Shown: piece after piece, positions 34,491 to 53,290 of the stretch | Layout: each line of letters begins with the position of its first letter | Position numbering within the stretch: the stretch's first letter is position 1 | DNA from: Pseudoselenomonas ruminantium | Lineage (GTDB): Bacteria > Bacillota > Negativicutes > Selenomonadales > Selenomonadaceae | Direction of reading: 5' to 3' | NCBI GenBank assembly: GCA_902781305.1 | Contig: CACZIV010000006.1 | Coordinates: 1-56,788, forward strand | DNA: 56,788 nucleotides | The notes under the pieces: generated by a model | The model's input: the letters and a program-made list of their open reading frames with translations, nothing else | Database searches by the model: none | What the model was told of the DNA's origin: nothing | Program-made: the position numbers and the translations under genes

Positions 34491-34580
34491 TGGTCATCCC
34501 TCCCTTCGATTAGTTACTGTCTCTATTATAGCTTATTTCCCTGTTGGTTTACATCGATATTTTCATAGTAAGTACGATTT

Positions 34581-34781
34581 GGTGGCGGGGACAGGGTATT
34601 GCACGGTCAGCTATGCCTTTGGGCTGAAAGAATTTTTGCCTTTTAATTCAGTATCGCTACCAGTCAAAACTCGCTGCGCTCAAACAGTAGACTGGTAGCG
34701 ATAAAACAGATGTAGGCAAAAATTCTTTCTTAACGCCCTACGGCATCACGCTTCCCTTAGCAATTCCCTGTCCCCGCCACC
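34581..34781 (-). repeat. Compound triple-stem hairpin element H
   Basis: Three nested perfect stems are seen: outer 16 bp (GGTGGCGGGGACAGGG at 34581-34596 with 34766-34781), middle 15 bp (GAAAGAATTTTTGCC at 34626-34640 with 34715-34729) and inner 14 bp (TATCGCTACCAGTC at 34652-34665 with 34690-34703). The inner loop on the minus strand is TGTTTGAGCGCAGCGAG. It lies upstream of the proline-rich protein gene. Confidence 0.9.
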
Positions 34782-34973
34782 CTCGTTCATGCTCTTTTCC
34801 TCCCTCAACGATTCCCCCTCACTCATACACTTTCCTACCACTAGCCATTCCACCTTCACTTATGCAGCTTTTCGCCCCATCTGCACTACCGCACGCCAAT
34901 GCGATAGCGAGGCGTAAACAGCACTATCCTGCACACCACAGAGCACCAACCGTCCAGATTGCCACAGACGCGA
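34782..34973. other. Non-coding spacer between two compound hairpins
   Basis: This pyrimidine-rich spacer has no open frame that I can support, no clear promoter and no stable hairpin. A stretch near 34905 (GCGATAGCGAGGCG) faintly recalls the inner-loop motif of the neighbouring elements and may be a remnant. Confidence 0.3.
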
Positions 34974-35159
34974 GGTGCGGGCAGAGCACTGTTCTAAGCG
35001 ATGCGTTTGACCGCTGGCGTAAAAAAAAGACTTTATTTGCGGCGGCTGAAAAATCTACTGTTTGAGCGAAGCGAGTTTAGATTTTTCAGCCGCGAATAGC
35101 AAATAAAGTCTTTTTAGCCAGAGGTCTAAGCAGCGCGTGAACAGTGCTCTGCCCGCACC
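34974..35159 (+). repeat. Compound triple-stem hairpin element I
   Basis: The outer stem is 21 bp and perfect (34974-34994 with 35139-35159). The flanks of the inner module read GCGTTTGACC and GGTCTAAGC, the same junction as in the simple repeats. The middle stem is GACTTTATTTGC (35029-35040 with 35099-35110) and the inner stem CGGCTGAAAAATCT (35043-35056 with 35079-35092). The inner loop is TGTTTGAGCGAAGCGAG. Confidence 0.92.
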
Positions 35160-35190
35160 GCCTTGCGCCACGAACGCCCCATGGTGGTAA

Positions 35191-36177
35191 TTAAAGCAGG
35201 TGTGCCCGCAGTTCCTCACCGGACTTAGCCGACAGATAGCTCGGCGCAATATCGAGCACCGTCTTGCAGCCCGTCACGCCTTCTTTGGCCAGGCGATAAG
35301 CTGCACGTGCATAGCAAACGAGCACGCTGGTCGTAAATTCCGGATTGGAATCGAGGTCGAGCTTGAACTCAATCACATGCTTATTTTCCCCATCATGTCC
35401 CGTAACACCGGAACGAATTACGCTGCCGCCATGGGGCAGGCCCTTGTGATTTTTGTCCAGTTCTTCCTGGCTGATGAAATGCACCGTCGTGTCGTATTCA
35501 TCAAAGTAGTTGGGCATGGTCTTGATTTCCTGCTCAACCTTAGCCGCATCAGCACCTTCTTCAAGTACCACATAGCACTCACGGGTATGTTTTTCCCGCG
35601 TGGTGAGTTCCGGATTTTCACCGGCGCGAACAGCAGCCAGCGCTTTTTCTACCGGCACCGTGTACTGACGGGCATCGGCTACGCCTTCAATGCGGCGGAT
35701 GGCATCCGAATGGCCCTGCGATACGCCGCGGCCCCAGAAGGTATAATCCTTGCCGTTCGGCAGGATGGCGTTGCTGTATACGCGGGCAAGGGAGAACAGG
35801 CCCGGGTCCCAGCCTACGGAAATGATACCTACATGACCGTTTTCCTTGGCAGCCTTATCCACATTTGCAAAATGCTCAGGAATCCGCGCATGCGTGTCGA
35901 AGCTGTCCACCACGTTAAAGAGTTTCGCATAGTGCGGCGTCTGCACCGGCAGGTCAGTAGCACTGCCGCCGCAGAGAATCATAACATCAATTTTATCTTC
36001 CCATTCTTCCACATCGCTGACATTGACCACGGGAACACCGGGCGTCTTGATGGTCAGCAGGGCCGGGTCACGGCGGGTAAATACCGCCACCAATTCCAAA
36101 TCATCATTGGCCTTTACAGCGCATTCCACGCCGCGGCCCAAATTACCATAACCTAAAATACCGATACGGATACTCAT
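35191..36177 (-). CDS. ddh: meso-diaminopimelate D-dehydrogenase
   Basis: This 328-residue NADPH enzyme has the N-terminal GILGYGNLGRGVE, then DSFDTHARIPEH, SVGWDPGLFSLARVY and FWGRGVSQGHSDAIRR, all typical of Ddh. It makes meso-diaminopimelate from tetrahydrodipicolinate and ammonia in one step for lysine and peptidoglycan. It is a single gene; compound hairpin I ends 31 bases past its stop. Confidence 0.95.
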   Translation of the reverse strand: MSIRIGILGYGNLGRGVECAVKANDDLELVAVFTRRDPALLTIKTPGVPVVNVSDVEEWEDKIDVMILCGGSATDLPVQTPHYAKLFNVVDSFDTHARIPEHFANVDKAAKENGHVGIISVGWDPGLFSLARVYSNAILPNGKDYTFWGRGVSQGHSDAIRRIEGVADARQYTVPVEKALAAVRAGENPELTTREKHTRECYVVLEEGADAAKVEQEIKTMPNYFDEYDTTVHFISQEELDKNHKGLPHGGSVIRSGVTGHDGENKHVIEFKLDLDSNPEFTTSVLVCYARAAYRLAKEGVTGCKTVLDIAPSYLSAKSGEELRAHLL

Positions 36178-36290
36178 AAGCTGCCTTCTTTCTATCTATA
36201 ACAGAAAAGTAATAGTAACTTCCCTTACTATACCACACCTACGCATAATTGAAAACGATTTTCGTAAATATTTTCCCACAAAAAGCACAT

Positions 36291-36324
36291 AAAAAGCGGC
36301 CGCTATTTCCCCGTAGCGGCCGCT
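36291..36324 (-). terminator. Terminator after the 219-residue gene
   Basis: A perfect 11-bp stem AGCGGCCGCTA/TAGCGGCCGCT is followed on the minus strand by TTTTT (36291-36295). It lies 8 bases past the stop codon. Confidence 0.9.
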
Positions 36325-36332
36325 GTAAAATC

Positions 36333-36992
36333 TTATTCTTCCATCTTGGCAGTCTGCTTAACGCCCATTTCTTCATAAAGCTTGTTGAAACGGTTGGTAA
36401 TCTCAGCCTGCGTGTCTTTGGTAATCTGGGGCATTTCGTCCTGTCCCATAGCATCCTTCCAAACAAGACCTGCCTGCTTGAACCCTTCTTCGACAGCTGC
36501 CTGCATCTGCTGGAGTTTTTCCGGGTCACCGCCCGCGATAGCCGTTGCCATGTCCATGATGCGAGTAGCTACGCTGTCAACGGAATACGCTCCGCCTTCG
36601 CCAATGGCTTCAGCAGCTTCTTCCGGCGTGGTTCCGACTGGCGGCAGCGCAAATTTGTCCGTGCCGAACAGAATCCCGTCAAAATTCAGCTGGCCAATGC
36701 CTTCATCGAGATAACCCTGCAACTTTGCATTCTGCTCCGTGAGGGTCTTAATCATCAGCTGATAGCTCTTGTTAATGCCATCCTGCAGGGCATCTACCTG
36801 CTCACTGGTGAGTTTGCCCAGCGCCGTGGATGCTTTCTTTGCTTCAGCGGAAATATCCACCGAAAAAGCCTCGGTACTGGTGGTTGTGGTTTCCTTCGTC
36901 GCTTCATTGGTCGTCGTGGTCGTACTCTTGGTGTAGTTCGCCTTCACTGCGGCCGAAGTCTGCGACAAAGAAGAAATCATATTGACATCCAT
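36333..36992 (-). CDS. Hypothetical secreted- or flagellum-like soluble protein
   Basis: This 219-residue protein begins MDVNMISSLSQTSAAVKANY, followed by a Thr-rich stretch of about 20 residues and FSVDISAEAKKAS. That start resembles flagellar hook-associated or DUF5610-like proteins, but I cannot assign a family. The C-terminal half is helical and acidic. There is no classical signal peptide. GGAGGAAG lies 7 to 9 bases before the ATG at 36992; the ATG at 36998 is too close to it. Single gene with its own terminator. Confidence 0.6.
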   Translation of the reverse strand: MDVNMISSLSQTSAAVKANYTKSTTTTTNEATKETTTTSTEAFSVDISAEAKKASTALGKLTSEQVDALQDGINKSYQLMIKTLTEQNAKLQGYLDEGIGQLNFDGILFGTDKFALPPVGTTPEEAAEAIGEGGAYSVDSVATRIMDMATAIAGGDPEKLQQMQAAVEEGFKQAGLVWKDAMGQDEMPQITKDTQAEITNRFNKLYEEMGVKQTAKMEE

Positions 36993-37133
36993 GTTCATCT
37001 TCCTCCTTTATCTATGAACCAAAAATCAGTTCAAACAGATATTTCTCCTAACTACATTATCGGCGAAACCAACAGAAAAAGCAAGCAATTTTTTGACGAT
37101 TTTGATTGTTTTTAGATTATATTTTATGTGCAT

Positions 37134-38414
37134 TCAGGAAAGAATCTGTTTAATCAGTTTCGCCAGTGCACGCTGGTCATTGCCATGCATGAGTTCCCGC
37201 GCGGAATGCATGGCCAGCAGGGGCACGCCAATATCCATCGTGCGCAAAGGGACAAGCGCCGAGGCAATGGAACCTAAGGTCGAGCCGCCCCGGCTGTCGC
37301 TGCGGTTGACAAAATGCTGCCAGGGAATATCGCAGGCCTCACATACGCCCCGCACGATGGCCACCGCTTCCGTATCGCCGGCATAAGACTGACTTGCGGC
37401 CTGCTTTAACACGACACCGCCGCCCAGCACCGGCTTATGGCTGGGGTCACACTTATCCATGAAGTTTGGATGCAGGGCATGAGCCACATCCACGGAGAGC
37501 ATAAAGCCTGCGGCAATAGCGGCCAGCATTTCTTCACGGGACTTGCCCAAAACGAGATAAATCCGCTCCAACACCTGCAGCAATACCGCTGAACCTGCCC
37601 CCTGCTTGGTCTGACTGCCCACTTCCTCATTGTCAAAGAGCGCCGCCAACCGCAAGCCGGTCATTTTCGCCGTGTCCACAGCCATAATCCCCTGCAGGCA
37701 GGCCAGTACCGAAGTCAGATTGTCAAGTCTGGGCGAGGAAACAAATTCCTCATTTAACCCGCAAAGGCTCCCTTCCTCATAAGGATAAGCTGACAGCTCA
37801 TAGGAAAGAATATCTGCCGGTTCAACCTGTAACTGCTCAGCCAGCCATGCATGGAAAAACTCTGCCGTAAGTTCTTCCCCACCAACGGTTGCCAGCGGCA
37901 GCATATCTTTCTGCGCGTTAAGTTTTCCCTCGTCATTGACTTCTCTGTCCATATGAATAGCCAATGAAGGAATCGTAAGCAAAGGACGGCCAAAGTCCAC
38001 CAATTTTACCTGCGGCGTAAAGGGGTCAGCACTGCGCAAAGCCACCTTGCCAGCTAATGCTAAAGGCCGGTCCAGCCAAGTGCGCAGCATCATGCCGCCG
38101 TATTTTTCCACATTGAGCACGCCATAGCCTTCCCGCGTGATTTCCGGCTGCGGTTTCAGACGAAAACAGGGAAAATCCGTATGCGCTGCCGCGATTCGCA
38201 ATGGGCCACCTTCCGTACCCAAGGCAAAAACCAACAAGGTGGAATCAAAAGCCTTCACAAAGTACCGCCCACCGGGCTGCAATTGCCATACTTCACTGAG
38301 TTTCAATTCTGTAAAACCAGCTTTTGCCAGCCGTTTAGCCGACGCCGCCACGGTATGATAAGGCGTAGGCGCCTCCTGGATAAAATTCAGCAGTTCCTTG
38401 ATATCCTTCTTCAT
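37134..38414 (-). CDS. apeB: M18-family aminopeptidase
   Basis: This 426-residue zinc peptidase of family M18 has AAHTDFPCFRLKP (first metal His-x-Asp), FDNEEVGSQTKQGAGS (catalytic Glu pair) and DVAHALHPNFMDKCDPSHKPVLGGG. It removes N-terminal acidic or neutral residues from peptides in the cytoplasm. Its start codon overlaps the stop of the thioesterase gene (ATGA), so the pair is coupled. Confidence 0.93.
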   Translation of the reverse strand: MKKDIKELLNFIQEAPTPYHTVAASAKRLAKAGFTELKLSEVWQLQPGGRYFVKAFDSTLLVFALGTEGGPLRIAAAHTDFPCFRLKPQPEITREGYGVLNVEKYGGMMLRTWLDRPLALAGKVALRSADPFTPQVKLVDFGRPLLTIPSLAIHMDREVNDEGKLNAQKDMLPLATVGGEELTAEFFHAWLAEQLQVEPADILSYELSAYPYEEGSLCGLNEEFVSSPRLDNLTSVLACLQGIMAVDTAKMTGLRLAALFDNEEVGSQTKQGAGSAVLLQVLERIYLVLGKSREEMLAAIAAGFMLSVDVAHALHPNFMDKCDPSHKPVLGGGVVLKQAASQSYAGDTEAVAIVRGVCEACDIPWQHFVNRSDSRGGSTLGSIASALVPLRTMDIGVPLLAMHSARELMHGNDQRALAKLIKQILS

Positions 38415-38851
38415 GCGTCCTCGTTCCCTTCCTCAACAAACTTGCCCAGCACATAAAAATTCCCATGTGCCTTGGCAAAAATCTTGCCATCCTCGCTTTT
38501 GAGTTCACTTTCACAGGTCATGGTATGCCGCCCGTCATGCAGAACCTTCGCCGTGGTTACGACCTTGGCCGTCAACGGCACCGCATGCAAAAAGTCCGTG
38601 GTCAGGCTGATGGTGACAACCTTCTTATTGCAGGCCAGGCACGCCGCTCCCATAGCCGTGTCGGCCATCGTCATGAGCACGCCGCCATGGGCAATGCCGT
38701 ACAAATTGGTATGCACCTCGTCAATGGGCAGTTCCAGCCGCACTTCCCCCGTGGGCAAAGGCTGTACCTGAATATGGAGATATTCCACAAAGGGATTATG
38801 ATGATAAAAGCGCACAATCTGCTGCTGTAATTCCGTAAGTTCCTGACTCAT
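38411..38851 (-). CDS. PaaI-type hotdog thioesterase
   Basis: This 146-residue hotdog-fold protein has HTNLYGIAHGGVLMTMADTA, which contains the catalytic region of the PaaI/YigI thioesterases. It hydrolyses acyl-CoA; the acyl group is not known. The start at 38851 has GAGGTG in front, and the GTG at 38863 is not preferred. It is followed by apeB with overlapping codons. Confidence 0.85.
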   Translation of the reverse strand: MSQELTELQQQIVRFYHHNPFVEYLHIQVQPLPTGEVRLELPIDEVHTNLYGIAHGGVLMTMADTAMGAACLACNKKVVTISLTTDFLHAVPLTAKVVTTAKVLHDGRHTMTCESELKSEDGKIFAKAHGNFYVLGKFVEEGNEDA

Positions 38852-38982
38852 AAAGCACCTCACCTATTCTTTCTTCTGCTCAAATTATACTCCTCTCCTT
38901 GAAAAAATACCATTCAGCAATTTTGCTCCATAAATAACCAACTGCTAAATAATCCCGCCTAAGCAAAGCAATCACAACAAAC

Positions 38983-39067
38983 TAAGCCCGCGGATGCTGG
39001 TAATGTTTTCCGCAGCTTTTGACAAGCCTGAGCGAAGGAAAATATTGCCAGCATCCGCGGGCGTCTT
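38983..39067 (+). repeat. Simple hairpin repeat, copy F
   Basis: The hairpin spans 38986-39062. GCCCGCGGATGCTGG pairs with CCAGCATCCGCGGGC, and TTTTCC with GGAAAA. The loop lacks TCTA compared with the other copies (GACAAGCCTGAGCG). It sits in a divergent intergenic region, upstream of both flanking genes, so a role in transcript ending is unlikely for this copy. Confidence 0.88.
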
Positions 39068-39167
39068 TTAGACGATTTGTAAGAATCGCTAATCCTCACA
39101 AGGTTTTTCTCTCCCTGATGACGAATATGTAAAAATGTGTTGTTCTATGCAGAAAGAAGGTTTTACG

Positions 39168-40232
39168 ATGCAAACGTATAAAATCGCCGTAATTGCCGGC
39201 GACGGCATTGGCCCGGATGTCATCAATGAGGGCAAAAAGGTACTCTCTGGCATTTCCAAAATGGATGGCAGTTTCCAGGTAGAATTTACCGATTTCCCCT
39301 GGGGCTGTGAATATTACCTCAAAGAAGGCAAAATGATGCCCGAAAACGGGTTGGAAATTCTCAAAGATTTTGATGCTATCTACTTAGGTGCGGTCGGCTA
39401 TCCCGGCGTACCCGATGATGTTTCCCTGCAAGGCCTGCTCTTAAAAATCCGCAAGGGCTTTGATGAGTACATCAACCTGCGCCCGGTAAAACTCCTCAAG
39501 GGTGCGCCCTGCCCCCTCAAAGATGTAAAAGAAGAAGATATCGACATGATTGTGGTGCGTGAGAACAGCGAAGGCGAATACGCTAACGTCGGCAGCCGCC
39601 TTTATCCCGGCACAGAGCAGGAAATCGCCCTGCAGACCGGTGTTTTCTCGCGCAAAGGCTGTGAACGCGTTATCCGCTATGCCTATGAATTGGCAAAAAA
39701 AGAAGGCAAGACCCTGACCAATATCAGCAAGGCCAATGCCCTTGGCTACTCCATGGTGTTCTGGAATGAAATCTTTGCCGAAATCGGCAAGGAATATCCC
39801 GAAGTCGAAACCTCCAGTCTCATGGTTGACGCCGCCAGTATGTTCTTCGTCAAGAACCCCGCCCGCTTCCAGATTGTCGTGACCAGCAACCTCTTCGGCG
39901 ATATCCTGACGGATTTGGGCGCCGCCATCGCTGGCGGCATGGGCCTGGCTGCCGGAGCCAACCTCAACCCCGAACGCCAATTCCCCAGCATGTTCGAGCC
40001 CATCCACGGCAGCGCCCCGGATATCGCGGGCAAAGGGTTAGCCAATCCCCTCGCCGCCATTTGGAGCGTCAGTCAGATGCTCGACTTCTTCGATCAGGAA
40101 GAATGGGGCAGGAAGGTCATCGACGCCATTGAAACGCTGCTGCAGGAGAAAAAGACGCTCACGCCCGACCTGGGCGGCACCGCCAAAACCGACGAAATTG
40201 GCGAAGCAATTCTTGCCATCCTTCGCCGATAA
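39168..40232 (+). CDS. Tartrate/D-malate-type beta-decarboxylating dehydrogenase
   Basis: This 354-residue enzyme of the isocitrate/isopropylmalate dehydrogenase family has IAVIAGDGIGPDV, FPWGCEYYLKEGKMMP, YLGAVGYPGVPDDVSLQ, VVRENSEGEYANVG and the metal/cofactor region TSNLFGDILTDLGAAI and FEPIHGSAPDIAGKG. The FPWGCEYY segment points to the TtuC/DmlA (tartrate or D-malate) subgroup rather than LeuB. It oxidises and decarboxylates a 2-hydroxyacid. ATG at 39168 with AGAAGG is preferred over 39135. Single gene. Confidence 0.85.
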   Translation: MQTYKIAVIAGDGIGPDVINEGKKVLSGISKMDGSFQVEFTDFPWGCEYYLKEGKMMPENGLEILKDFDAIYLGAVGYPGVPDDVSLQGLLLKIRKGFDEYINLRPVKLLKGAPCPLKDVKEEDIDMIVVRENSEGEYANVGSRLYPGTEQEIALQTGVFSRKGCERVIRYAYELAKKEGKTLTNISKANALGYSMVFWNEIFAEIGKEYPEVETSSLMVDAASMFFVKNPARFQIVVTSNLFGDILTDLGAAIAGGMGLAAGANLNPERQFPSMFEPIHGSAPDIAGKGLANPLAAIWSVSQMLDFFDQEEWGRKVIDAIETLLQEKKTLTPDLGGTAKTDEIGEAILAILRR

Positions 40233-40252
40233 AAACATAATTAGGCAAAACT

Positions 40253-40461
40253 AAGCCCGCGGGGCTGGTGATGTTTTTCCGTAGCTTTTGACCGTAAGCG
40301 TTAAGAAACAAATTTTGACCATACCAAAAATAGCTCTAAAAGCCATTTGTCTGAGCACAGCGAGTTTATGGCTTTTAGAGCTATTTTATTAAAAGGTCAA
40401 AATTTGTTTTAGCTTACGGTCTAAGCGCAGACTGGCAAAGCATCACGGCCACACCGGGCAC
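40253..40461 (+). repeat. Compound hairpin element G joining simple and nested architecture
   Basis: The outer arms begin AAGCCCGCGGGGCTGG and end CGGGC as in the simple repeats but pair imperfectly (40255-40459). The junction TTTTGACC...GGTCTAAGCG is that of the simple loop. Inside are GACCGTAAGC (40290-40299 with 40412-40421), AAACAAATTTTGACC (40306-40320 with 40395-40409) and a perfect 20-bp inner stem (40327-40346 with 40368-40387). The inner loop is TTTGTCTGAGCACAGCGAG. It lies between convergent genes. Confidence 0.92.
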
Positions 40462-40479
40462 GCTTATCTGTCAGAGAAC

Positions 40480-41022
40480 TTAGTAATTCTCTGCATGAAC
40501 CTCGAAGTAACTCTGCGGATGTGCACACGCCGGGCAAATCTGCGGTGCCTTGGTGCCCACCACGATATGGCCGCAGTTGCGGCATTCCCAAACTTTTACT
40601 TCGCTCTTTTGGAACACTTCCTGCGCCTCCACATTTTTCAGCAGGGCACGATAGCGTTCCTCATGGTGCTTTTCAATGTCGGCCACCAGACGGAACTTCG
40701 CCGCCAATTCCTTAAAGCCTTCTTCTTCGGCAGTCTTGGCAAAGCCAGCGTACATATCCGTCCACTCGTAGTTTTCCCCATCGGCAGCATCCTTCAGATT
40801 CGTTGCCGTATCGGGTACAGCACCATCATGGAGTTCCTTGAACCACATCTTGGCATGTTCTTTTTCGTTGTCGGCAGTTTTCAAGAACAGGGCAGCAATC
40901 TGCTCAAAGCCGTCTTTCTTGGCTTTTGAAGCATAGTAGGTGTACTTGTTGCGCGCCTGGCTTTCCCCGGCGAAGGCGGCTTCCAAATTCTTCTCAGTCT
41001 GGGTTCCTGCATATTTGCTCAT
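40480..41022 (-). CDS. rbr: Rubrerythrin
   Basis: This 180-residue protein has an N-terminal four-helix di-iron domain with [18 protein letters not shown] and NEKEHAKMW and a second Glu/His set ([10 protein letters not shown]). A C-terminal rubredoxin domain carries two Cys-x2-Cys pairs (CRNCG and CPACA). It reduces peroxide in anaerobes. Start has TAGGAGG. Single gene. Confidence 0.96.
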
Positions 41023-41075
41023 AAATTCTACCTCCTAAAATATAATTGACTACACATGAATATTTTACCATGAAT

Positions 41076-41102
41076 TAGCCGCTCCCGTAAACGGAGCGGC
41101 TA
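41076..41102 (-). terminator. Hairpin downstream of the chemoreceptor gene
   Basis: TAGCCGCTCC and GGAGCGGCTA form a 10-bp stem with a short loop 20 bases past the stop. The T-run is weak, so it may stop transcription only partly. Confidence 0.55.
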
Positions 41103-41121
41103 GTCCAAGTTATGAACTTAA

Positions 41122-42915: not shown

Positions 42916-43044
42916 AAGCTCTCCCTCCTTAGAATCTTTTCGAATATTGCGTTTTATAGGAATAATTCTATTTTAACAGGCAGTTTCCTGCCTGCGAGTA
43001 AAGTTTTCTTTTAGTTCGAGGTATCGGGGGGCGAGGTACAAGGC

Positions 43045-43240
43045 GCGGCGGGCGGGGGATATCTGTCTTCCGCTAATGCCTAGAGCTAAAATATTTTTTG
43101 CCCTTAATTCATTAGCTGGGAAAGTCAAAACTCGCTCCGCTCAAACAGTAGACTTTCCCCGCTAAAAACAGGGGTATGGCAAAAAATATTTCTTAACGCT
43201 CTATGCCTTACGCTTCAGCCAGACATCCCCCGCCCGCCGC
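43045..43240 (-). repeat. Compound triple-stem hairpin element J
   Basis: The outer stem is 16 bp and perfect (GCGGCGGGCGGGGGAT at 43045-43060 with 43225-43240). The middle stem is AATATTTTTTGCC with GGCAAAAAATATT, and the inner stem GGGAAAGTC (43118-43126 with 43151-43159). The inner loop on the minus strand is TGTTTGAGCGGAGCGAG. Spacers such as GCGTTAAGAAA and TTAATTCA match element H. Confidence 0.9.
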
Positions 43241-43286
43241 TCGCTGTCGCATTGCGTATCTTCGGATGACCTTATTTGAATATACG

Positions 43287-43329
43287 AAAAAGTTCCCTGC
43301 ATAAGAGATTACCCTATTGCAAGGAACTT
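43287..43329 (-). terminator. Terminator of the candidate structured RNA / sua5 transcript
   Basis: On the minus strand AAGTTCCTTGCA pairs with TGCAGGGAACTT (one U-G pair) and is followed by TTTTTCG. The wobble pair is only a valid pair in the minus-strand RNA, which supports transcription in this direction. Confidence 0.75.
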
Positions 43330-43384
43330 CACATTTCATATAAATCGTAGCAGCGAGCGCTGATAAGCAGCAGCCAAGTAACTT

Positions 43385-43558: not shown

Positions 43559-43572
43559 AATACGCACTACCT

Positions 43573-44634: not shown

Positions 44635-44642
44635 TTATCTTG

Positions 44643-46588: not shown

Positions 46589-46604
46589 TTATTTCACCTC
46601 AAAC

Positions 46605-47561
46605 TCATTCTGTAACAGCAGCGGCCACAGGAGCGTTATCCTCCACTTCATTTTCAGCCTCTGCCTTATGAATATAATCCGGCGTACCTTCTAAAATTTC
46701 TTTCTCGGGCAGAACCGCCTTCAGCGATTCAATCGCCACTTCCACCATTTCATCATCAGGCGGGCGGGTAGTCAGATATTGCAGCCAAAGACCCGGACGG
46801 ATAGCGGTCTGAATCAGACTGTTCTGACTGCGCCCGGCAAGTCTTATAATCTCATAGGAAATCCCTGCCACCACCGGCAGCAGCAGGATACGGCTGGCAA
46901 TACGCTCCCATAAGGAGGGCCAGCCCAGGAACGCAAACACAAAGATGGACACGAGCATGACAATCAGCAAAAAGTTCGTGCCACAGCGCGGATGCAGGCG
47001 CGGGAACTTCTGCACATTTTCCACCGTCAGCGGCAGACCTGCTTCATAGCAGAAAATCGTCTTATGCTCTGCCCCATGATACTGGAACACGCGGCGAATG
47101 TCCTTCATACGGGAAATCCCCCAGATATACAGGAGGAAAATCACCAACCGCAAACAGCCTTCCAAAAGATTCAATACCACCGGGTCTTCCGTGGCACCAT
47201 GAATCAGTTTAGCCGCCCCTGTAGGAATGGCAATAAAAAGAATACTGGCTAAAGCCAGGGCAAAGACAATCGTGCCCGCCATTTCCTTATCGGATAGCTG
47301 TTCATCTTCCTCGCCGGCCATCTTGGCCGAATAGGACAGCGACTTCATGCCGATGACGAGCGACTCGATTAACGACACTGTACCGCGCAAAAAGGGCTTT
47401 TTCAAAATGGGAAATCTATCGCTAATGGAATTTACGGGCTTGGTCTCGACCTGAATCTTGCCTTGCGGGTCGCGTACAGCTGTCGCCGTGAGTTTCGGCC
47501 CCCGCATCATCACGCCTTCAATAACGGCCTGACCGCCTACCATTAATTTCTTATCACTCAT
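46605..47561 (-). CDS. yqhQ: DUF1385 membrane protein YqhQ
   Basis: This 318-residue protein starts KLMVGGQAVIEGVMMRGP, the DUF1385 signature, and has about four hydrophobic segments in the middle (VFALALASILFIAIP, LLIVMLVSIFVFAFLGWP) and FQYHGAEHKTIFCYEAG. The family is common in Firmicutes next to rpmE and prfA. Its function is not established. Ribosome site TTAGGAGGAAAG. Confidence 0.92.
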   Translation of the reverse strand: MSDKKLMVGGQAVIEGVMMRGPKLTATAVRDPQGKIQVETKPVNSISDRFPILKKPFLRGTVSLIESLVIGMKSLSYSAKMAGEEDEQLSDKEMAGTIVFALALASILFIAIPTGAAKLIHGATEDPVVLNLLEGCLRLVIFLLYIWGISRMKDIRRVFQYHGAEHKTIFCYEAGLPLTVENVQKFPRLHPRCGTNFLLIVMLVSIFVFAFLGWPSLWERIASRILLLPVVAGISYEIIRLAGRSQNSLIQTAIRPGLWLQYLTTRPPDDEMVEVAIESLKAVLPEKEILEGTPDYIHKAEAENEVEDNAPVAAAVTE

Positions 47562-47623
47562 GGTCTTTCCTCCTAACGTACACTTGGAAACACCGAATAT
47601 TCAATATTTATGCTGATACTAAA

Positions 47624-47650
47624 TAAAGCAGAGCAATTTGCTCTGCTTTA
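47624..47650 (-). terminator. Terminator after rpmE
   Basis: A 12-bp stem TAAAGCAGAGCA/TGCTCTGCTTTA with a three-base loop is followed on the minus strand by TTTAGT. It lies 13 bases past the rpmE stop codon. Confidence 0.8.
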
Positions 47651-47662
47651 CCATAACGTATC

Positions 47663-47863
47663 TTACTTCTTGGCGTAACGCTTGTTGAACTTTTCGATAC
47701 GACCGCCTGCCTGTACGTCACGCTGACGACCCGTGAAGAACGGATGGCATTTGGAGCAAACATCGACGCGCAGTTCTTTCTGCGTGGAACCCGTGGTGAA
47801 CGTGTTACCGCAACCGCAAGTTACCGTAGCTTCGAAATATTCCGGATGAATACCCTGTTTCAT
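47663..47863 (-). CDS. rpmE: Ribosomal protein L31 (zinc form)
   Basis: This 66-residue L31 keeps the zinc ligands: CGC near residue 16 and CSKC near residue 37. It ends in the usual basic tail (FNKRYAKK). It is part of the large ribosomal subunit. It starts a translation-related cluster but has its own promoter and terminator. A leader of about 140 bases precedes it. Ribosome site GCGAGGTG. Confidence 0.96.
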
Positions 47864-47879
47864 GATTTACACCTCGCTT

Positions 47880-48006
47880 TCACCCCAACGAAACTGGGAA
47901 TTGATACAAGCAAGCTATGCGCGAGCTTGGTTTAGACCTAGCCTACCTTTTGGGGCAAAGCCAGTCAAGTTTTGACTTGGAACCAGACGTCAGTACGTCC
48001 AGTACC
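47880..48006 (-). promoter_or_regulatory. Structured 5' leader of rpmE (possible L31 autoregulatory leader)
   Basis: Between the predicted start site near 48005 and the ribosome site the transcript contains inverted repeats such as CCAGTCAAG/CTTGACTGG and GTACTGACGT/ACGTC and a run GCCCCAAAAGG. Leaders that bind L31 are known in several bacterial groups. I cannot match a specific consensus by eye. Confidence 0.35.
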
Positions 48007-48011
48007 CGAAT

Positions 48012-48040
48012 ATTATAGCACGAGCAAAGTCACTATGCAA
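48012..48040 (-). promoter_or_regulatory. SigmaA promoter of rpmE
   Basis: On the minus strand TTGCAT (48035-48040) and TATAAT (48012-48017) are separated by 17 bases. Confidence 0.75.
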
Positions 48041-48059
48041 GGAATCCTTGAAAATTTGC

Positions 48060-48088
48060 TTGAAAATTTTTCCTTCCTATATGATAAT
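48060..48088 (+). promoter_or_regulatory. SigmaA promoter of the ClpX-like gene
   Basis: TTGAAA (48060-48065) and GATAAT (48083-48088) are separated by 17 bases, 52 bases before the ATG at 48141. Confidence 0.65.
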
Positions 48089-48140
48089 GGTAGTGTATAT
48101 CAAGATATTACGCGACTTCACATACAGAAAGGAAATTATT

Positions 48141-49418
48141 ATGGCTAAACAAACCATGCAACATCAGTGCAGCTTCTGCAAGCGGATTATCAATGTCCGT
48201 GACCAGTATGACCTGCCCATCTACGACCCCAACACCGGCTTTGCCATCTGCCGCAACTGCATCAAGGAAGTCAACCACTTCTTAGAGGAGCACGATGCCG
48301 CACAGGTGCAGGATGAAAAGCAGGTCTTTGCCGGCGAACTTGACGATATTCTCGCCAAGAACAAGCCCCATATCATCAAGCAGTACCTCGATGAATACAT
48401 TATCAATCAGGACAGAGCCAAGAAGATTCTCTCGGTGGCCGTCTACAACCACTACAAGCGCATGAAATACGGCTATCAGCAAAGTGACGGCACCGAAATC
48501 GAAAAGTCCAACGTCATCATGCTCGGCCCCTCCGGCTGCGGCAAGACGGCGCTTTTATCCCACCTCTCGAAACTTTTGGACATTCCCTTTGCCGTAACGG
48601 ACGCTTCCAGCCTCACCGAAGCCGGCTTCGTCGGCGCTGACGTAGAAGTCGCTGTCCGCAACCTCTACTACGCTGCCGACAAAGATGTAGAAAAGGCTGA
48701 ACACGGCATCATCTATCTCGATGAATTCGACAAGATTGCCCGCAAGTCCGGCGCCAACAACTCCATCACCGCCGACCCCGGCCACGAAGGCGTACAGCAG
48801 GCCCTCTTAAAGATGCTCGAAGGCAGTGTCGTGGAATTCACCTCCCGCGGCCAGCGCAAACATCCCGAAGCGCCCACCATCAAAGTGGATACGAAAAACA
48901 TCCTCTTTATCGTAGGCGGTGCCTTTGTCGGCATTGATGATGTGATTGCCAAGCGCCTCAGCAAAACCAGCACGATTGGCTTCGGCGCCGAAATTCAGGG
49001 CAAGGAAGACAAGCCCAAATTTGACGAACTCATCCATAAGGTTCGCCCCGAAGACCTCATGCAGTACGGCATCATCCCTGAAATCATCGGCCGTCTGCCC
49101 GTTATCTGCACGCTCGAAACCTTGGATGAAGATGCTCTCCTGCGCATCCTCACCGAGCCCAAGAATGCTCCGGTCAAACAGTATGAAAAACTTTTGGCCA
49201 TGGATAACGTCGAACTGGAATTCCAGGAAGAAGCCCTGCGCGCCGTCGCCCGCAAGGCCATCGAGCGCAAGACCGGCGCCCGCTCCTTGAAGGGCATTAT
49301 CGAAGACTTGATGCTCGACGTCATGTTCGATATCCCCAAATCCAACGAACCACGCAAAGTCATCATCACCAAGGCCTGCATTGAAGACGGTGCTCAGCCT
49401 GAAGTGGTGAAGAAGTAA
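48141..49418 (+). CDS. clpX: ClpX-family AAA+ unfoldase (divergent copy)
   Basis: This protein of 425 residues has an N-terminal zinc-binding domain (CSFCK and CRNC), Walker A GPSGCGKTAL, pore-loop GFVG in LTEAGFVGADVE, Walker B IIYLDEFDKIARKS, the RKH loop (GQRKHP) and the IGF loop (TIGFGAE) that docks on ClpP. All working parts are present, but several near-invariant ClpX stretches differ (ITADPGHEGVQQ for the usual ITRDVSGEGVQQ, GPSGCGKT for GPTGSGKT). No clpP or tig is adjacent. It may be a second ClpX-like unfoldase. ATG at 48141 has AAAGGAA. Confidence 0.85.
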   Translation: MAKQTMQHQCSFCKRIINVRDQYDLPIYDPNTGFAICRNCIKEVNHFLEEHDAAQVQDEKQVFAGELDDILAKNKPHIIKQYLDEYIINQDRAKKILSVAVYNHYKRMKYGYQQSDGTEIEKSNVIMLGPSGCGKTALLSHLSKLLDIPFAVTDASSLTEAGFVGADVEVAVRNLYYAADKDVEKAEHGIIYLDEFDKIARKSGANNSITADPGHEGVQQALLKMLEGSVVEFTSRGQRKHPEAPTIKVDTKNILFIVGGAFVGIDDVIAKRLSKTSTIGFGAEIQGKEDKPKFDELIHKVRPEDLMQYGIIPEIIGRLPVICTLETLDEDALLRILTEPKNAPVKQYEKLLAMDNVELEFQEEALRAVARKAIERKTGARSLKGIIEDLMLDVMFDIPKSNEPRKVIITKACIEDGAQPEVVKK

Positions 49419-49425
49419 CACAAGC

Positions 49426-50589
49426 TTACTTCTTTGGTTCCGGCAACAAAAACGTTGCGGCCGCACAGCAGATGGAGATGACGAAAATCACCACCATCAC
49501 CGCGGCAATGCCAAAGCTGTCTGCATACCAGCCTAGCGACGGCACGATAATTCCGCCTAAGCTGAAGGACAGGCCCAAAGTTACACCGGAAGCAAACCCC
49601 AGGCTCTTAGCCAGATAACTCTGTCCGAGCACCACAAACGCCGCATATGGTCCCTGCATGGCAAAACTCATGGGAATCAGCATGGCATAAACCGCCCAAA
49701 TGCTTTGGGTAAAAATCACCACAGCCAGACACGGCACCAACAGGCAGCAGCCATAGCGCAGGGTTTTGACATAGCCCTTGCGGTCAGCTAATCTACCGCC
49801 CACCAGGGTCGCCAATACGCCGGTTATCGAAATAATCGACAGCGTAGCACTGCCTACGGCAGGAGTTGCCCTCAACGCCTGAATGCAGAACAGCGGCAGA
49901 AAGCTGCTGATAGCCGTAAAGAGCGTGGAACGAAAGACAATCACCAAAAACAGCCGGGAAAAGGCACGCCAATCATTTTCCCGCGCAACAGCAGCTGCCG
50001 CGGACTTATGTTGAGCCTGTTGCAGCTGCTTTTTGCTTTCCCGTGCAATGGCCGGTGCCGCCAGGAAAATCATACCGCCCGTAAACAGGGACGCAATCCC
50101 GTAAAAGGCCGTTCCCTGCATGCCAAATGTCGTAACGAGAAAGACCGCCAGCAGCGGGCCCAGACCAAAGCCGCCATTGCCGCCCACGCTGAAAATGCTC
50201 ATGCCCTGACCTTTTTTCGCCCCGGCAATAGCATTAACATTGCGAGCCGCTTCCGGGTGAAAGATGGAGCTGCCAATGCCCATCAATGTTACGGCAGCAA
50301 AAATCCCCCAGTAATTGGTCACAAAACCGGTTGCCGCCAGCGACAGCCCCGCCATAAGCACGCCGAGCACCATAAACCACTGGCGGGAACCTTTATCCGC
50401 CAACCAGCCAAACAGCGGCTGAATAACCGAGGACAAAAAAGACGAGGCAAACATCAGCCCCGCAATCGAGGTATAATCCATGCCGTATTCACTGACGAAA
50501 AACGGCAACAATGCCGGCAGGGAACCACTGTTGATATCCACACTTAAATGCCCTGCCGAAAGCATATAGAGATACTTTTTATTCATCAC
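49426..50589 (-). CDS. MFS exporter of the fosmidomycin-resistance (Fsr) type
   Basis: This 387-residue protein with 12 predicted membrane segments has GHLSVDINSGSLPALLPFF at the start and GIGSSIFHPEAARNVN plus GMSIFSVGGNGGFGLGP, both typical of Fsr. It exports small molecules by proton antiport. The real substrate in this cell is unknown. It is convergent with the ClpX-like gene, whose stop is 7 bases away. Confidence 0.85.
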   Translation of the reverse strand: MMNKKYLYMLSAGHLSVDINSGSLPALLPFFVSEYGMDYTSIAGLMFASSFLSSVIQPLFGWLADKGSRQWFMVLGVLMAGLSLAATGFVTNYWGIFAAVTLMGIGSSIFHPEAARNVNAIAGAKKGQGMSIFSVGGNGGFGLGPLLAVFLVTTFGMQGTAFYGIASLFTGGMIFLAAPAIARESKKQLQQAQHKSAAAAVARENDWRAFSRLFLVIVFRSTLFTAISSFLPLFCIQALRATPAVGSATLSIISITGVLATLVGGRLADRKGYVKTLRYGCCLLVPCLAVVIFTQSIWAVYAMLIPMSFAMQGPYAAFVVLGQSYLAKSLGFASGVTLGLSFSLGGIIVPSLGWYADSFGIAAVMVVIFVISICCAAATFLLPEPKK

Positions 50590-50673
50590 GTCAAGCTCCT
50601 TAAAAAATTTATTCCTATTGTAACAAATTTTTCCATCACGAGCAATTTACCTTGCAATTGAATATCACCAAAG

Positions 50674-50719
50674 AAAAAGCAGGCCAGTCGGTCAAAAATG
50701 ACCAACCGCCTGCTTTTTT
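50674..50719. terminator. Bidirectional terminator next to the 70-residue gene
   Basis: AAAAAGCAGGC (50674-50684) pairs with GCCTGCTTTTT (50708-50718), and an inner stem GGTC/GACC closes the loop. Runs of A on the left and T on the right give a T-tract on either strand. Confidence 0.8.
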
Positions 50720-50726
50720 ACGTCAA

Positions 50727-50939
50727 TCAACGATTATTTGCGTTACCATCATCCCAGCAATAGCCTCTATGACCATGACCACGGCCACGACCGCCGCAGT
50801 ACCAGCCATCATCGGACTGATTAGCTGTATCCTGCCAGCAATACCCCGGACGAGCATCCACTTTCGTATCCGCTGCCAATGCCGGAACTGCGCTGGCCAG
50901 CATCAAGCCAGCAGCGAAGGCTGCAAAAATTTTCTTCAT
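50727..50939 (-). CDS. Small secreted Gly/His/Arg-rich protein
   Basis: This 70-residue protein has a clear signal peptide (MKKIFAAFAAGLMLASAVPALA) and a mature part of about 47 residues. The mature part contains three cysteines in a repeated GYCW/WYCG pattern and the stretch GGRGRGHGHRGYCWDD. The His and Asp content suggests metal or polyanion binding, but this is not shown. No family recognised. It has a terminator behind it and stands alone. Confidence 0.7.
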   Translation of the reverse strand: MKKIFAAFAAGLMLASAVPALAADTKVDARPGYCWQDTANQSDDGWYCGGRGRGHGHRGYCWDDGNANNR

Positions 50940-51034
50940 GGTAAAACCCCCTGTACATGTACATCTTCCTGTTAACAGTCGATTAACAGTTTTATTTTAC
51001 CAGTTAATTGTGACGTTAATGTGACTTTTATCAA

Positions 51035-52066
51035 TCAAATATCCATGGAACTAATCTTTTCCGCTTTCATAAAGGCAGAGATTTTTTGTACGCCCCGCAT
51101 AACCTCATTGTAATTCTCCGGAGTCAGCGACTGCGGACCATCAGAAAGAGCCTTGGCAGGATTCGGATGAACTTCCATCATCAAACCGTCAGCACCAGCA
51201 GCAATGGCCGCAAAGGCCATGGGTTTTACCATTCTCCATTTACCCGTGCCATGGCTCGGGTCAACGATAATCGGCAGGTGGGACAGGTGCTTTACAGCCG
51301 CCACTGCACTTAAATCGAGCGTATTGCGCGTATAGGTTTCGTAGGTGCGAATACCGCGCTCACAGAGCACCACATTGGGATTGCCTGCATTCATAATGTA
51401 TTCGGCGGCATTGAGCCATTCGTCAATCGTTGCCGCCAGACCACGTTTTAAGAGCACCGGCTTGCCGCATTTGCCCACTTCTTTCAAAAGGCCAAAGTTC
51501 TGCATATTGCGGGCGCCAATCTGCAGCATATCCGCATATTCTACCACCCGTTCAATGGCTTCAACCGTGGTAACTTCCGTCACCACGCGCAGGCCCGTAC
51601 GCTCACGGGCTTCGGCTAAGTATTTCAAACCTTCGACTTCCAGCCCCTGGAACGCATAAGGGGAAGTGCGCGGCTTATAAGCACCGCCGCGCAGGAATTG
51701 CGCACCGGCCTTTTTCACGATTTCTGCCGCTTCAAACAGCTGTTCTTTTGACTCTACCGCACAAGGACCTGCCATAACCACAGGCGTACCATCACCGATT
51801 TTTACCCCGGCCACATCAATAACGCTGTTTGCGGGATGGAATTCCCGGCTGGCCAGCTTGTAGCTCTTGGAAATCTCCACGCTCTTTTCCACGCCGTCCA
51901 ATGCGTCAATAGGCACCGAAGCCAACCTCGTCTTATCACCGATAACGCCGACAATCTTCTGCTGACTGCCCTCCATCACCTTAGCCTGCAGGCCTGCGCC
52001 CTCAATAACCGCAATGACTTCTTTAATGTTTTCCGCCGTAGCATCCACATTCATAATAATAACCAT
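51035..52066 (-). CDS. aroF: 3-deoxy-7-phosphoheptulonate synthase (DAHP synthase)
   Basis: This 343-residue protein has an N-terminal ferredoxin-like regulatory domain (about 1-70, MVIIMNVDATAENIKEVIAV) and a catalytic barrel with MAGPCAVES, RGGAYKPRTSPYAFQG, LLKRG and IIVDPSHGTGKW. It condenses PEP and erythrose-4-phosphate at the entry of aromatic biosynthesis. It lies 26 bases after pheA, so the first and a late step are cotranscribed. Confidence 0.96.
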   Translation of the reverse strand: MVIIMNVDATAENIKEVIAVIEGAGLQAKVMEGSQQKIVGVIGDKTRLASVPIDALDGVEKSVEISKSYKLASREFHPANSVIDVAGVKIGDGTPVVMAGPCAVESKEQLFEAAEIVKKAGAQFLRGGAYKPRTSPYAFQGLEVEGLKYLAEARERTGLRVVTEVTTVEAIERVVEYADMLQIGARNMQNFGLLKEVGKCGKPVLLKRGLAATIDEWLNAAEYIMNAGNPNVVLCERGIRTYETYTRNTLDLSAVAAVKHLSHLPIIVDPSHGTGKWRMVKPMAFAAIAAGADGLMMEVHPNPAKALSDGPQSLTPENYNEVMRGVQKISAFMKAEKISSMDI

Positions 52067-52092
52067 AATTCCATCCCCTTCTATATAAATGC

Positions 52093-52929
52093 TTAATTAA
52101 CCGTAAGTACGGGGAACGTCCCCAGATTCCGCAGCCAAATACTTTTCTTCTTCACCGCTGCCAAAGACTCTGCTAACTGCGGCGAATCGCTGTACTCCAA
52201 ATCAAAAAAGAATATATACGCGCCCAGCTCCGTTCTGGCAGGCCGCGATTCAATACGCGTCATATTGATGCCCCGCTGGGCAAACTCCTTCAAGACTTCA
52301 AAGAGTGCACCGGCCTTCTGCCCATCAATCTGACAGATGACCAATAATTTTTCCTTGGGCAAAAATTCCAAGGCCTGCCGGCCCACCTGGAAAAACCGCG
52401 TGCAGTTGGCGGCACTGTCCTGAATCTCTGTGGCAATCGGCACAAGGCCCAAAAGCTCTCCCGCTCTGGCCGTAGCAATGGCCGCACTGCCGGAATCGGC
52501 CGGCGCTTCGGCCACAATCTCCGCCGCCCGCGCGGTACTGGCCACCTTGATGAGTTCTGCCTGCGGATAATGCGCCTGCAAAAACGCCCGGCACTGGGAA
52601 ATCGGCTGCGCATGAGAATAAATCCGCTTAATCTCACCCTTACGCCGTGCTAACAGCTGATTATGGACAGGCCAGATAAGCTCCCGCCAGACCGTCAGCC
52701 CCTCACTGCGTGCCAACGTGTCCAAGGTAATATTGATGGCACCCTCCAGCGAGTTTTCCACCGGCACCAATGCCGAATCCACCTCACTATTTTCGACCGC
52801 CTGCAAACAGTCAAAAATATCGGCAAACAGCACCAATTTATAATCCTCGCCTGTCTGGCGCTTCAAATACACCGCCGCCGCCTCGCTATGGGTTCCCGCC
52901 GGCCCCAGCACGCCCAAAGTCATCGCCAT
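52093..52929 (-). CDS. pheA: Prephenate dehydratase
   Basis: The protein has 278 residues: a dehydratase domain with GVLGPAGTHSEAAA and VPVENSLEGAINITLD, the TRFF motif (SAANCTRFFQVG), and a C-terminal ACT domain containing GINMTRIESRPARTELGAYIF, which binds phenylalanine for feedback control. It converts prephenate to phenylpyruvate. The ATG at 52929 has GGGGGAG at proper distance; the GTG at 52935 is too close. Confidence 0.95.
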   Translation of the reverse strand: MAMTLGVLGPAGTHSEAAAVYLKRQTGEDYKLVLFADIFDCLQAVENSEVDSALVPVENSLEGAINITLDTLARSEGLTVWRELIWPVHNQLLARRKGEIKRIYSHAQPISQCRAFLQAHYPQAELIKVASTARAAEIVAEAPADSGSAAIATARAGELLGLVPIATEIQDSAANCTRFFQVGRQALEFLPKEKLLVICQIDGQKAGALFEVLKEFAQRGINMTRIESRPARTELGAYIFFFDLEYSDSPQLAESLAAVKKKSIWLRNLGTFPVLTVN

Positions 52930-52962
52930 AAACACTCCCCCAGAATCTCAACAATTGACAAT

Positions 52963-52991
52963 ATCATAGCATAATAGCCATAAATTAACAA
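52963..52991 (-). promoter_or_regulatory. SigmaA promoter of pheA-aroF
   Basis: On the minus strand TTGTTA (52986-52991) and TATGAT (52963-52968) are separated by 17 bases. Confidence 0.6.
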
Positions 52992-53081
52992 GCTTTTCCA
53001 TAAAAAGTTACAATAAGTTCATTGTAAACAAACATCCATACTAAATACAGCGACATTATTGATAATAAGCATATAGACTGA

Positions 53082-53270
53082 GGGGGCTGGCGGCTGTTGC
53101 GACAATGCGTTAGCGGCGCGGCGTAAAGAAATGATTTTTTCCTCACCAAAAAAGCAGCTAAAAAAAGTCAACTGTCTGAGCACAGCGAGTTTTGACTTTT
53201 TTAGCTGCCTAAAAGGAAAAAATCATTTCAGCCGCAGAGCGAAGCAGTGCCGCAACAGCCGCCAGCCCCC
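53082..53270 (+). repeat. Compound triple-stem hairpin element K
   Basis: The outer stem is 20 bp and perfect (53082-53101 with 53251-53270). The middle stem is GAAATGATTTTTTCC (53128-53142 with 53215-53229). The inner stem is GCAGCTAAAAAA with TTTTTTAGCTGC plus GTCAA/TTGAC. The inner loop is CTGTCTGAGCACAGCGAG. It ends 20 bases past the stop codon of the exonuclease gene. Confidence 0.92.
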
Positions 53271-53290
53271 GCCAAGCACATAGAGCCGAA

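What the first reader, a model, noticed from the sequence alone, without database searches (positions are those of the whole stretch)
34581..53270. Compound elements of about 200 bp with three nested stems and a conserved inner loop
Elements at 34581-34781, 34974-35159, 40253-40461, 43045-43240 and 53082-53270 each contain three nested stems, most of them perfect, between 9 and 21 bp. Stem sequences are unrelated between copies, but the innermost loop is always TGTYTGAGCRNAGCGAG followed by a TTT-containing edge. Spacers such as GCGTTAAGAAA and TTAAAAGG recur at the same junctions. Three copies lie in one direction and two in the other. Such large folded units in short intergenic regions should make very stable RNA or cruciform DNA.
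Basis: seen in the sequence. Interest (0 to 1): 0.9.

Follow-up and report, generated by a model that had tools for sequence, protein, structure and literature searches.

The report
Mobile folded DNA repeats behind genes
The five folded elements belong to a family of about 200-base repeats scattered through rumen Selenomonas genomes, mostly sitting right behind genes, whose hairpin shape is kept although most of the stem letters change; they look like mobile DNA that has settled as gene endings, and their job is unproven.

Summary
All five elements are there (covariance-model E at most 1.4e-40), with the loop motif 5 of 5 (0.10 expected). Most copies of the family have four helices, not three (50 of 81). 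"Unrelated stems" is half right: stem columns range from 36% identity (outer stem) to 72%, the loop 91%. Pairing is strongly kept: 40 of 52 pairs show double-sided changes, covariation 0.571 against 0.166 shuffled. The window lies in a Selenomonas ruminantium-like genome; 21 of 22 genomes of the genus carry the family, a single-contig relative at 34 places. A convergent stop codon lies within 60 nt in 86 of 129 Selenomonas copies; 2 of 129 lie between divergent genes. Close pairs run "- then +", 6 of 6 in that relative. Two other species hold 95-100% identical copies in bulk, so the family moved recently there. Best reading: REP/BIME- and MITE-like palindromic DNA repeats with a GNA-type mini-hairpin tip, kept as gene 3' ends. 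They fail the REP tests (GTAG/CGTC tag, RAYT). No transposase, transcript or binding partner was found. New variant of a known kind.

The parts
34581..34781 (-). Element 1. Outer arms 34581-34602/34760-34781, stem 2 34626-34641/34714-34729, stem 3 34652-34665/34690-34703, apical loop 34670-34686
   Evidence: (162 bits)
34974..35159 (+). Element 2, partner of element 1 in a '- then +' pair. Outer arms 34974-34994/35139-35159, stem 2 35024-35040/35099-35115, stem 3 35042-35057/35078-35093, loop 35059-35075. Its right end is 31 nt from the stop codon of ORF 35191-36177 (-)
   Evidence: (137 bits)
40253..40461 (+). Element 3. Stem 1b region 40287-40308/40403-40424, stem 2 40306-40320/40395-40409, stem 3 40327-40346/40368-40387, loop 40348-40364; outer arm imperfect and hybrid. 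Between convergent ORFs 39135-40232 (+) and 40480-41022 (-); 18 nt to the latter's stop
   Evidence: (136 bits)
43045..43240 (-). Element 4. Outer arms 43038-43068/43217-43247 (84%), stem 2 43089-43102/43178-43191, stem 3 43112-43126/43151-43165, loop 43131-43147
   Evidence: 169 bits
53082..53270 (+). Element 5. Outer arms 53082-53108/53244-53270 (93%), stem 2 53128-53143/53214-53229, loop 53173-53189. Right end 20 nt from the stop codon of ORF 53291-53956 (-)
   Evidence: 153 bits

Best explanation
These are copies of a genus-wide family of interspersed palindromic DNA repeats, of the same broad kind as REP/BIME and MITE repeats. SHOWN: one strand can fold into a nested hairpin with covarying helices; the most conserved parts are the apical loop, with a two-pair mini-hairpin around an RNA (GNA/ANA) triloop, and the spacer before stem 2; copies mostly sit with their right end against a gene's stop codon, some as inverted pairs; near-identical copies occur in bulk in two species, and in relatives copies lie in units that end in inverted repeats AAATTRCAGTTTG. 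INFERRED: the family spreads, or spread, by an unidentified transposase acting in trans that reads the folded shape or the unit ends. Once behind a gene the copy takes the place of its terminator and is then kept as the 3' end, so that pairing rather than stem letters is under selection. Stems change mostly as whole paired modules, by exchange between copies or by replacement, not by steady drift.
For: Family: 21 of 22 genomes at E<=0.01, own genome 32 rows, G019 60, row counts including mirror hits on the other strand; 34 distinct places in the single-contig genome G010, one of them partial (list typed into). Structure: 40 of 52 pairs with double-sided changes, covariation 0.571 against 0.166 shuffled and at most 0.128 when the partner is slid. 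Apical mini-hairpin: closing pair G-C 103, A-T 19, G-T 1, A-C 1 of 124 Selenomonas copies; 32, 6, 1, 0 of 39 copies below 80% identity, one of them Fusicatenibacter. Mobility: clusters of 14 and 4 copies in G019 and 11 in G012 at mean 98.5-99.2% identity (from 15 and 11 loci). Units with both terminal repeats were read in G019, G001 and G018; in G012 only one end. The terminal pattern occurs 21-71 times in 8 of 9 genomes, reversed control 0-1. Placement: stop codon of a convergent gene within 60 nt in 86 of 129, divergent context 2 of 129; close pairs '- then +' 6 of 6 in G010. Replaced terminator, by eye at the orthologue of gene 35191-36177: G005 and G013, without the element, have an ordinary terminator behind the stop; G000, G003, G006, G010, G011, G016 and G017, with the element, have none between stop and element. 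Constraint: of 29 G010 copies tried against the held part of G011, 19 had an orthologous copy; in 12 of the 19 stems differ 1.8% against 6.4% in flanks, in 7 stems differ 14.1% with 28 double compensations (classes split by me at 7% stem difference). Module exchange: 31 of 6,903 copy pairs share stems 2 and 3 at >=90% but stem 1 at <=60% (no chance baseline).
Against: No transposase or autonomous partner was identified. Y1 transposase was not found in 9 of 22 genomes, all of which carry the family (G001, G002, G006, G009, G010, G011, G014, G017, G018), and the close terminal-repeat pairs that I read off the cut list were at most about 710 bp apart. Flanks of the window copies and of the G010 copies (90 nt printed) show no terminal repeats by eye, so their own mobility is inferred from relatives. 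G012 keeps an ordinary terminator in front of its unit, against the replaced-terminator reading there. Where G011 lacks the G010 copy in a readable way (L190), it is a deletion in G011, not a clean insertion; the second case (L194) is unreadable. A simple scan finds no canonical terminator spanning an element, only two small hits inside the left arm of element 3, but its loop limit of 8 nt makes it nearly blind to these hairpins. No expression data. G008 has no match. In the conserved class single-arm changes (23) were not compensated (1). The constraint could also reflect gene conversion.
Confidence: 0.6

Rival explanations
1. A structured non-coding RNA family: each copy is transcribed from the loop-motif strand and works as RNA, and the repeats are paralogous RNA genes or 3' UTR domains.
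For: Covariation in 40 of 52 pairs; G.U exceeds A.C on the motif strand, 54:28 and 29:11 in non-redundant sets; conserved wobble positions such as columns 49/157 (G.U 17, G-C 4, A-U 3 of 24); a left-hand gene running with the motif strand in 56 of 129 copies.
Against: G.U is only about 1.6% against 7.8% in 8 tRNAs; the motif strand is antisense to the right-hand gene in 91 of 129 copies; no Rfam family at gathering, and at E<=1 only four matches, all to microRNA precursor families far below their gathering scores; by eye no conserved T-run at the right end.
Confidence: 0.2
2. A folded single-stranded DNA recombination or transposition site, read by shape like an integron attC site or an IS200/REP hairpin; stems are free, while bulges and the tip are read by an enzyme.
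For: Conserved tip and asymmetric spacers, freer stems; the tip core GCGNAGC is the known extra-stable DNA mini-hairpin (passages of PMC4686876); closing-pair covariation; young near-identical copies; the same tip occurs on other palindromes in Fusicatenibacter, a Bacteroidales MAG, a viral contig and another Bacillota genome.
Against: No enzyme found; Y1 transposase does not track the family; integron integrase not searched; single-strand cleavage cannot be tested here.
Confidence: 0.35
3. Ordinary long bidirectional terminators that evolved in place, with no mobile history.
For: Position at stop codons; A/T-rich stem 2 with T-runs on both strands; absence of another terminator between stop and element in seven genomes at the site read (by eye).
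Against: Shared loops and spacers across many loci need common descent; bulk identical copies and terminal repeats in relatives; atypically large and nested.
Confidence: 0.12
4. Palindrome arms kept alike by a mutation mechanism (arm-templated repair at stalled forks), with no function.
For: Long near-perfect palindromes are classical substrates for it (recalled); the concerted stem changes would fit.
Against: In 12 conserved orthologue pairs single-arm changes outnumber compensated pairs 23 to 1, so arms are not quickly homogenised; it does not explain conserved unpaired loops.
Confidence: 0.08

Closest known systems
REP / BIME (repetitive extragenic palindromes; GTAG and CGTC super-families; passages of PMC3733652 and PMC2817692)
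   Same: Intergenic hairpins in many copies, inverted pairs with a spacer, partly variable stems
   Different: About 200 nt with nested helices instead of 20-40 bp; no GTAG or CGTC tag; Y1/RAYT transposase does not follow the family; stems change through compensated modules
Bacterial MITEs (passages of PMC10969869 and PMC3049150)
   Same: Short, apparently non-coding, highly base-paired; units with terminal inverted repeats in G001, G018, G019 and near-identical copies in G012, G019
   Different: Window copies lack visible terminal repeats; no partner transposase; no clear target duplication seen; copies persist under constraint
Pneumococcal BOX / SPRITE repeats (passages of PMC3049150)
   Same: Interspersed repeats with extensive secondary structure, BOX being modular; SPRITE resembles a terminator
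   Different: Nested, not tandem, modules; stems free in sequence
Integron attC sites (passages of PMC8946536)
   Same: Imperfect hairpin with unpaired bases that set strand preference (analogy only)
   Different: Copies are single or in inverted pairs; the most conserved part is the tip; integrase and cassettes were not searched for
d(GCGNAGC) GNA mini-hairpin DNA (passages of PMC4686876)
   Same: The tip core GC-RNA-GC has this sequence class in 90 of 124 copies with a GNA triloop
   Different: The ANA triloop seen in 34 of 124 copies is outside the GNA/GNNA set named there; folding in the cell is untested

Membership tests
REP (GTAG/CGTC super-families) | GTAG or CGTC tetranucleotide at one end of the palindrome | tested here: not met
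   2 and 2 of 58 copies below 85% identity, one of the 58 being Fusicatenibacter
REP (GTAG/CGTC super-families) | Cognate RAYT (Y1/HUH transposase) in the genome | tested here: not met
   PF01797 in 13 of 22 genomes; not found in 9 that carry the family, some of them incomplete
REP (GTAG/CGTC super-families) | Extragenic hairpins in many copies, often as inverted dimers | tested here: met
MITE | Terminal inverted repeats | tested here: inconclusive
   Both ends read in G001, G018, G019, one end in G012; not seen by eye around the five window copies
MITE | Near-identical copies at many sites | tested here: met
   mean 98.5-99.2% identity in clusters of 14, 4 and 11 in relatives, not in the window's own genome
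MITE | Target site duplication and a parent transposon with the same ends | tested here: inconclusive
   No clear duplication by eye in the units read; no parent among pairs read by eye off a cut list
Structured non-coding RNA | Covarying helices | tested here: met
Structured non-coding RNA | Known Rfam family | tested here: not met
   none at gathering over the window; chance-level matches at E<=1 over 34500-53400
Structured non-coding RNA | Transcript from the folded strand | not testable with these tools
   no expression data
attC-like site | Tyrosine recombinase IntI and R/L box sequences | not tested
   integrase and box motifs not searched

The most novel reading that the evidence does not exclude
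A DNA repeat family whose heritable identity is a fold rather than a sequence: stems are swapped or rewritten as paired modules, while an ultra-stable GNA-type DNA mini-hairpin at the tip and asymmetric bulges are kept as the recognition signal of an unknown single-strand DNA enzyme working across phyla, and the host uses the copies as its gene 3' ends.
Probability: 0.2. Interest if true: 0.85.

Novelty: new variant of a known kind. Interest (0 to 1): 0.62.

Why it matters
If right, it adds a repeat class in a major rumen genus, for which I found no description, in which shape is conserved more than letters. It would give a natural test set for how DNA palindromes evolve (drift, module exchange or repair), and a way to look for the enzyme that reads the GCGNAGC tip. 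It would also show mobile repeats serving as gene 3' ends.

Tried and rejected
RAYT/REP: rejected as membership. Insertion sequence in the loop as the origin of the elements: the element (HTH plus integrase frames; naming it IS3 family, IS150-like, is mine) ends in the tip at C19, C74 and G016 C102 (3 of the 20 IS ends printed), and by coordinates at G016 C149; the other ends printed lie elsewhere, many terminator-like by eye, so it uses the element as one target. Plasmid or phage origin: no blastn match of the 34581-35159 pair in plasmids or phages. Rfam: nothing convincing. Literature: loop-sequence searches returned 2 and 6 papers, unrelated by listing; 'Selenomonas ruminantium' with 'palindromic' gave 8, none about such repeats by listing and abstract start; Selenomonas with MITE or 'repetitive extragenic' gave one unrelated paper each. 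I saw no prior description, but the library holds open-licence papers only and no preprints. Passages, not whole texts, were seen of PMC3733652, PMC2817692, PMC4686876, PMC3049150, PMC10969869 and PMC8946536.

Lagging-strand bias: counted by hand positions, motif strand on the lagging side in 23 of 34 copies; confounded with gene direction, so not used. Origin-proximal clustering (1 of 28 loci in 46.5% of the genome) was chosen post hoc. A hybrid copy (L102, - strand) that joins halves of two families may be an assembly chimera in a MAG. Terminator scan: little use because of its loop limit. Rows left out: one search skipped five non-Selenomonas loci; one search dropped the truncated or hybrid copies (L072, L101, L102 -), leaving 78 copies, of which 27 below 80% identity; one search dropped three of these (L004, L037, L058, arms replaced or odd), so A1 holds 24, four of the five window copies among them. 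Searches used only copies that match fixed loop patterns, with enough flank; they had let in three and one non-Selenomonas loci (132 and 125 copies), which removes (129 and 124). The non-redundant sets still hold one Fusicatenibacter copy. Neighbour genes are longest open frames, not annotations; orthologues were not collapsed; the left neighbour was unresolved in 32 and the right in 8 of 129.
Full report
WHAT IS THERE. All five reported elements are real. The loop motif occurs exactly five times in the window, three on the plus and two on the minus strand, against 0.10 expected. A covariance model built from 24 copies less than 80% identical (four of the five window elements are among the 24) finds all five at 136-169 bits. 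Antisense mirror hits of 38-50 bits, expected from palindromes, were not counted as copies. Three elements folded on their own gave z-scores of -12.5, -9.3 and -11.5.

ANATOMY. Reading 5' to 3' on the motif strand: outer stem (about 21 bp), internal loop with AGCGNAGCG-like letters on both sides, stem 1b (10-12 bp), spacer CGTnAAGAAA, A/T-rich stem 2 (15-16 bp), a variable bulge, stem 3 (about 14 bp), tip ACTGTYTGAGCRNAGCGAGT, then the mirror arms, often with TTAATTAAAAGG and TTTTAGC as right-hand spacers. Under a strict Watson-Crick rule 50 of 81 copies show four helices, 22 three, 5 five, and 4 fewer. Mean column identity: tip 0.91, spacer before stem 2 0.84, stem 2 0.72, stem 3 0.58, stem 1b 0.43, stem 1 0.36.

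THE FOLD IS UNDER CONSTRAINT. 91.3% of cells pair, 40 of 52 pairs have a double-sided change, and the covariation score is 0.571, against 0.166 after shuffling and 0.08-0.13 when partners are slid. The structure came from the same alignment, which inflates the paired-cell figure somewhat. The tip holds a two-pair mini-hairpin R-C(RNA)G-Y: R and Y are G-C in 103, A-T in 19 and mixed in 2 of 124 Selenomonas copies (earlier count with one foreign copy); 32, 6 and 1 of 39 copies less than 80% identical. GC-GNA-GC is described as an extraordinarily stable, nuclease-resistant DNA mini-hairpin, Tm 78 C for GCGAAGC (passages of PMC4686876). Its formation in the cell is inference.

DISTRIBUTION. The host is Selenomonas ruminantium-like: 55 of 57 stretches with an exact 25-base tip pattern in genome contigs are Selenomonas records, one is Fusicatenibacter and one a Bacteroidales MAG. 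In a draw of 120 genomes (own genome included), 12, all in the genus, carry the exact pattern. The model finds the family in 21 of 22 genus genomes (row counts include mirror hits). In a draw of 398 genomes of the phylum one genome outside the genus, G190, had two tip matches. Outside the genus the tip sits on other palindromes; of these only Fusicatenibacter L074 fits the model well over its full length (85 bits), while L132 and one stretch of L137 fit weakly (39 bits), and L133, L110 and another stretch of L137 only over the tip.

PLACEMENT. Of 129 Selenomonas copies with loop-pattern matches and enough flank, the right neighbour is a convergent gene in 91, a same-strand gene in 30 and unresolved in 8; 2 lie between divergent genes (correcting). 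In 86 of 129 the stop codon is within 60 nt. A left-hand gene running towards the element was called in 56, mostly 280-440 nt away, where the partner of a pair often lies. In G010, 34 distinct places form 28 loci, including six pairs closer than 1.2 kb, all "- then +". Copies cluster in the origin-side half by GC skew: 1 of 28 loci in 1.21-2.52 Mb, two largest gaps matched by 4 of 20,000 random sets (region chosen after seeing the data).

HISTORY. At the gene next to the window pair (found in 21 of 22 genomes) the model finds elements in 8 of the 21 (pairs in G000, G003 and G016; single copies in G006, G010, G011, G012 and G017); the loci of G001, G002 and G012 end 155-337 nt behind the gene. 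By eye, remnants remain in G004, G006, G010 and G017; G005 and G013, without the element, show an ordinary terminator; G012 keeps a terminator in front of its unit. G010 and G011 share a gene 97% identical there but carry different elements (72%). Of 29 G010 copies tried against the held part of G011 (about 1.2 Mb), 19 had an orthologous copy, 2 had both flanks but no copy, and 8 could not be placed on both sides. Of the 19, 12 differ little in stems (1.8%; flanks 6.4%) and 7 differ strongly (14.1%; flanks 7.8%) with 28 double-compensated pairs and 62 single changes; in the first class single-arm changes outnumber compensated ones 23 to 1. I read this as constraint plus replacement or exchange of whole paired modules; the class border of 7% was set by me. 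Module mosaics exist (31 of 6,903 pairs of copies with like stems 2 and 3 and unlike stem 1; no chance baseline). At L190, G011 has lost the hairpin and kept both flanks.

MOBILITY. In G019 and G012 copies are 95-100% identical within clusters of 14, 4 and 11, often at contig ends. Units bounded by AAATTRCAGTTTG ... CAAACTGYAATTT were read in G019, G001 and G018; in G012 one end only. That terminal pattern is abundant in 8 of 9 genomes tested, also around units of about 600 bp in which the model was not found (L318-L320); 16 of 52 outer flanks fold with z below -2, many as terminators by eye. An insertion sequence that I take for IS3-type has landed in the element's tip at least four times, as IS1397 is recalled to do in E. 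coli palindromic units (titles seen in a reference list).

READING. I commit to a mobile palindromic DNA repeat, now kept at gene 3' ends, at 0.6. The mobile step is supported only in relatives; the 3'-end role is inferred from placement, absence of another terminator at the site read, and constraint. It resembles REP/BIME in organisation but fails the tag and RAYT tests, so it is not filed as REP. RNA function is not excluded: the motif strand is mildly favoured by wobble counts (54:28).

Noticed in passing
window 38979-39069, 55157-55233, 55287-55365: Short hairpins (arms 24-33 nt); the copies at 55157 and 55287 share a loop with GTTTGACAAGCCTGTCTAAG, and the left arm at 38979 resembles the left arm of element 3 at 40253.
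   Followed up: partly
window 43383-43560: 33-nt inverted repeat (85%), 112 nt apart, ending 12 nt from the stop codon of ORF 43573-44634 (-); it may be the pair partner of element 4 from another hairpin family.
   Followed up: no
L318-L320, L324-L328, L332, L333 (G010): A second family of about 600-bp units, most with ends AAATTRCAGTTTG, with long nested palindromes and GAACGCAGTGAG-type loops, several directly behind intrinsic terminators by eye.
   Followed up: partly
L112, L113, L131 and G016:C149: Insertion sequence ends inside the element's tip; the same IS elsewhere often lies next to terminator-like hairpins by eye.
   Followed up: partly
G010:C1: Element copies are concentrated in the origin-proximal half of the chromosome.
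   Followed up: partly
L074, L110, L132, L133, L137: The same tip sequence crowns other palindromes in other bacterial groups.
   Followed up: partly
L102, minus-strand copy near 2793: Hybrid element whose left and right halves come from two families; outer arms pair, inner ones do not; possibly a MAG chimera.
   Followed up: no
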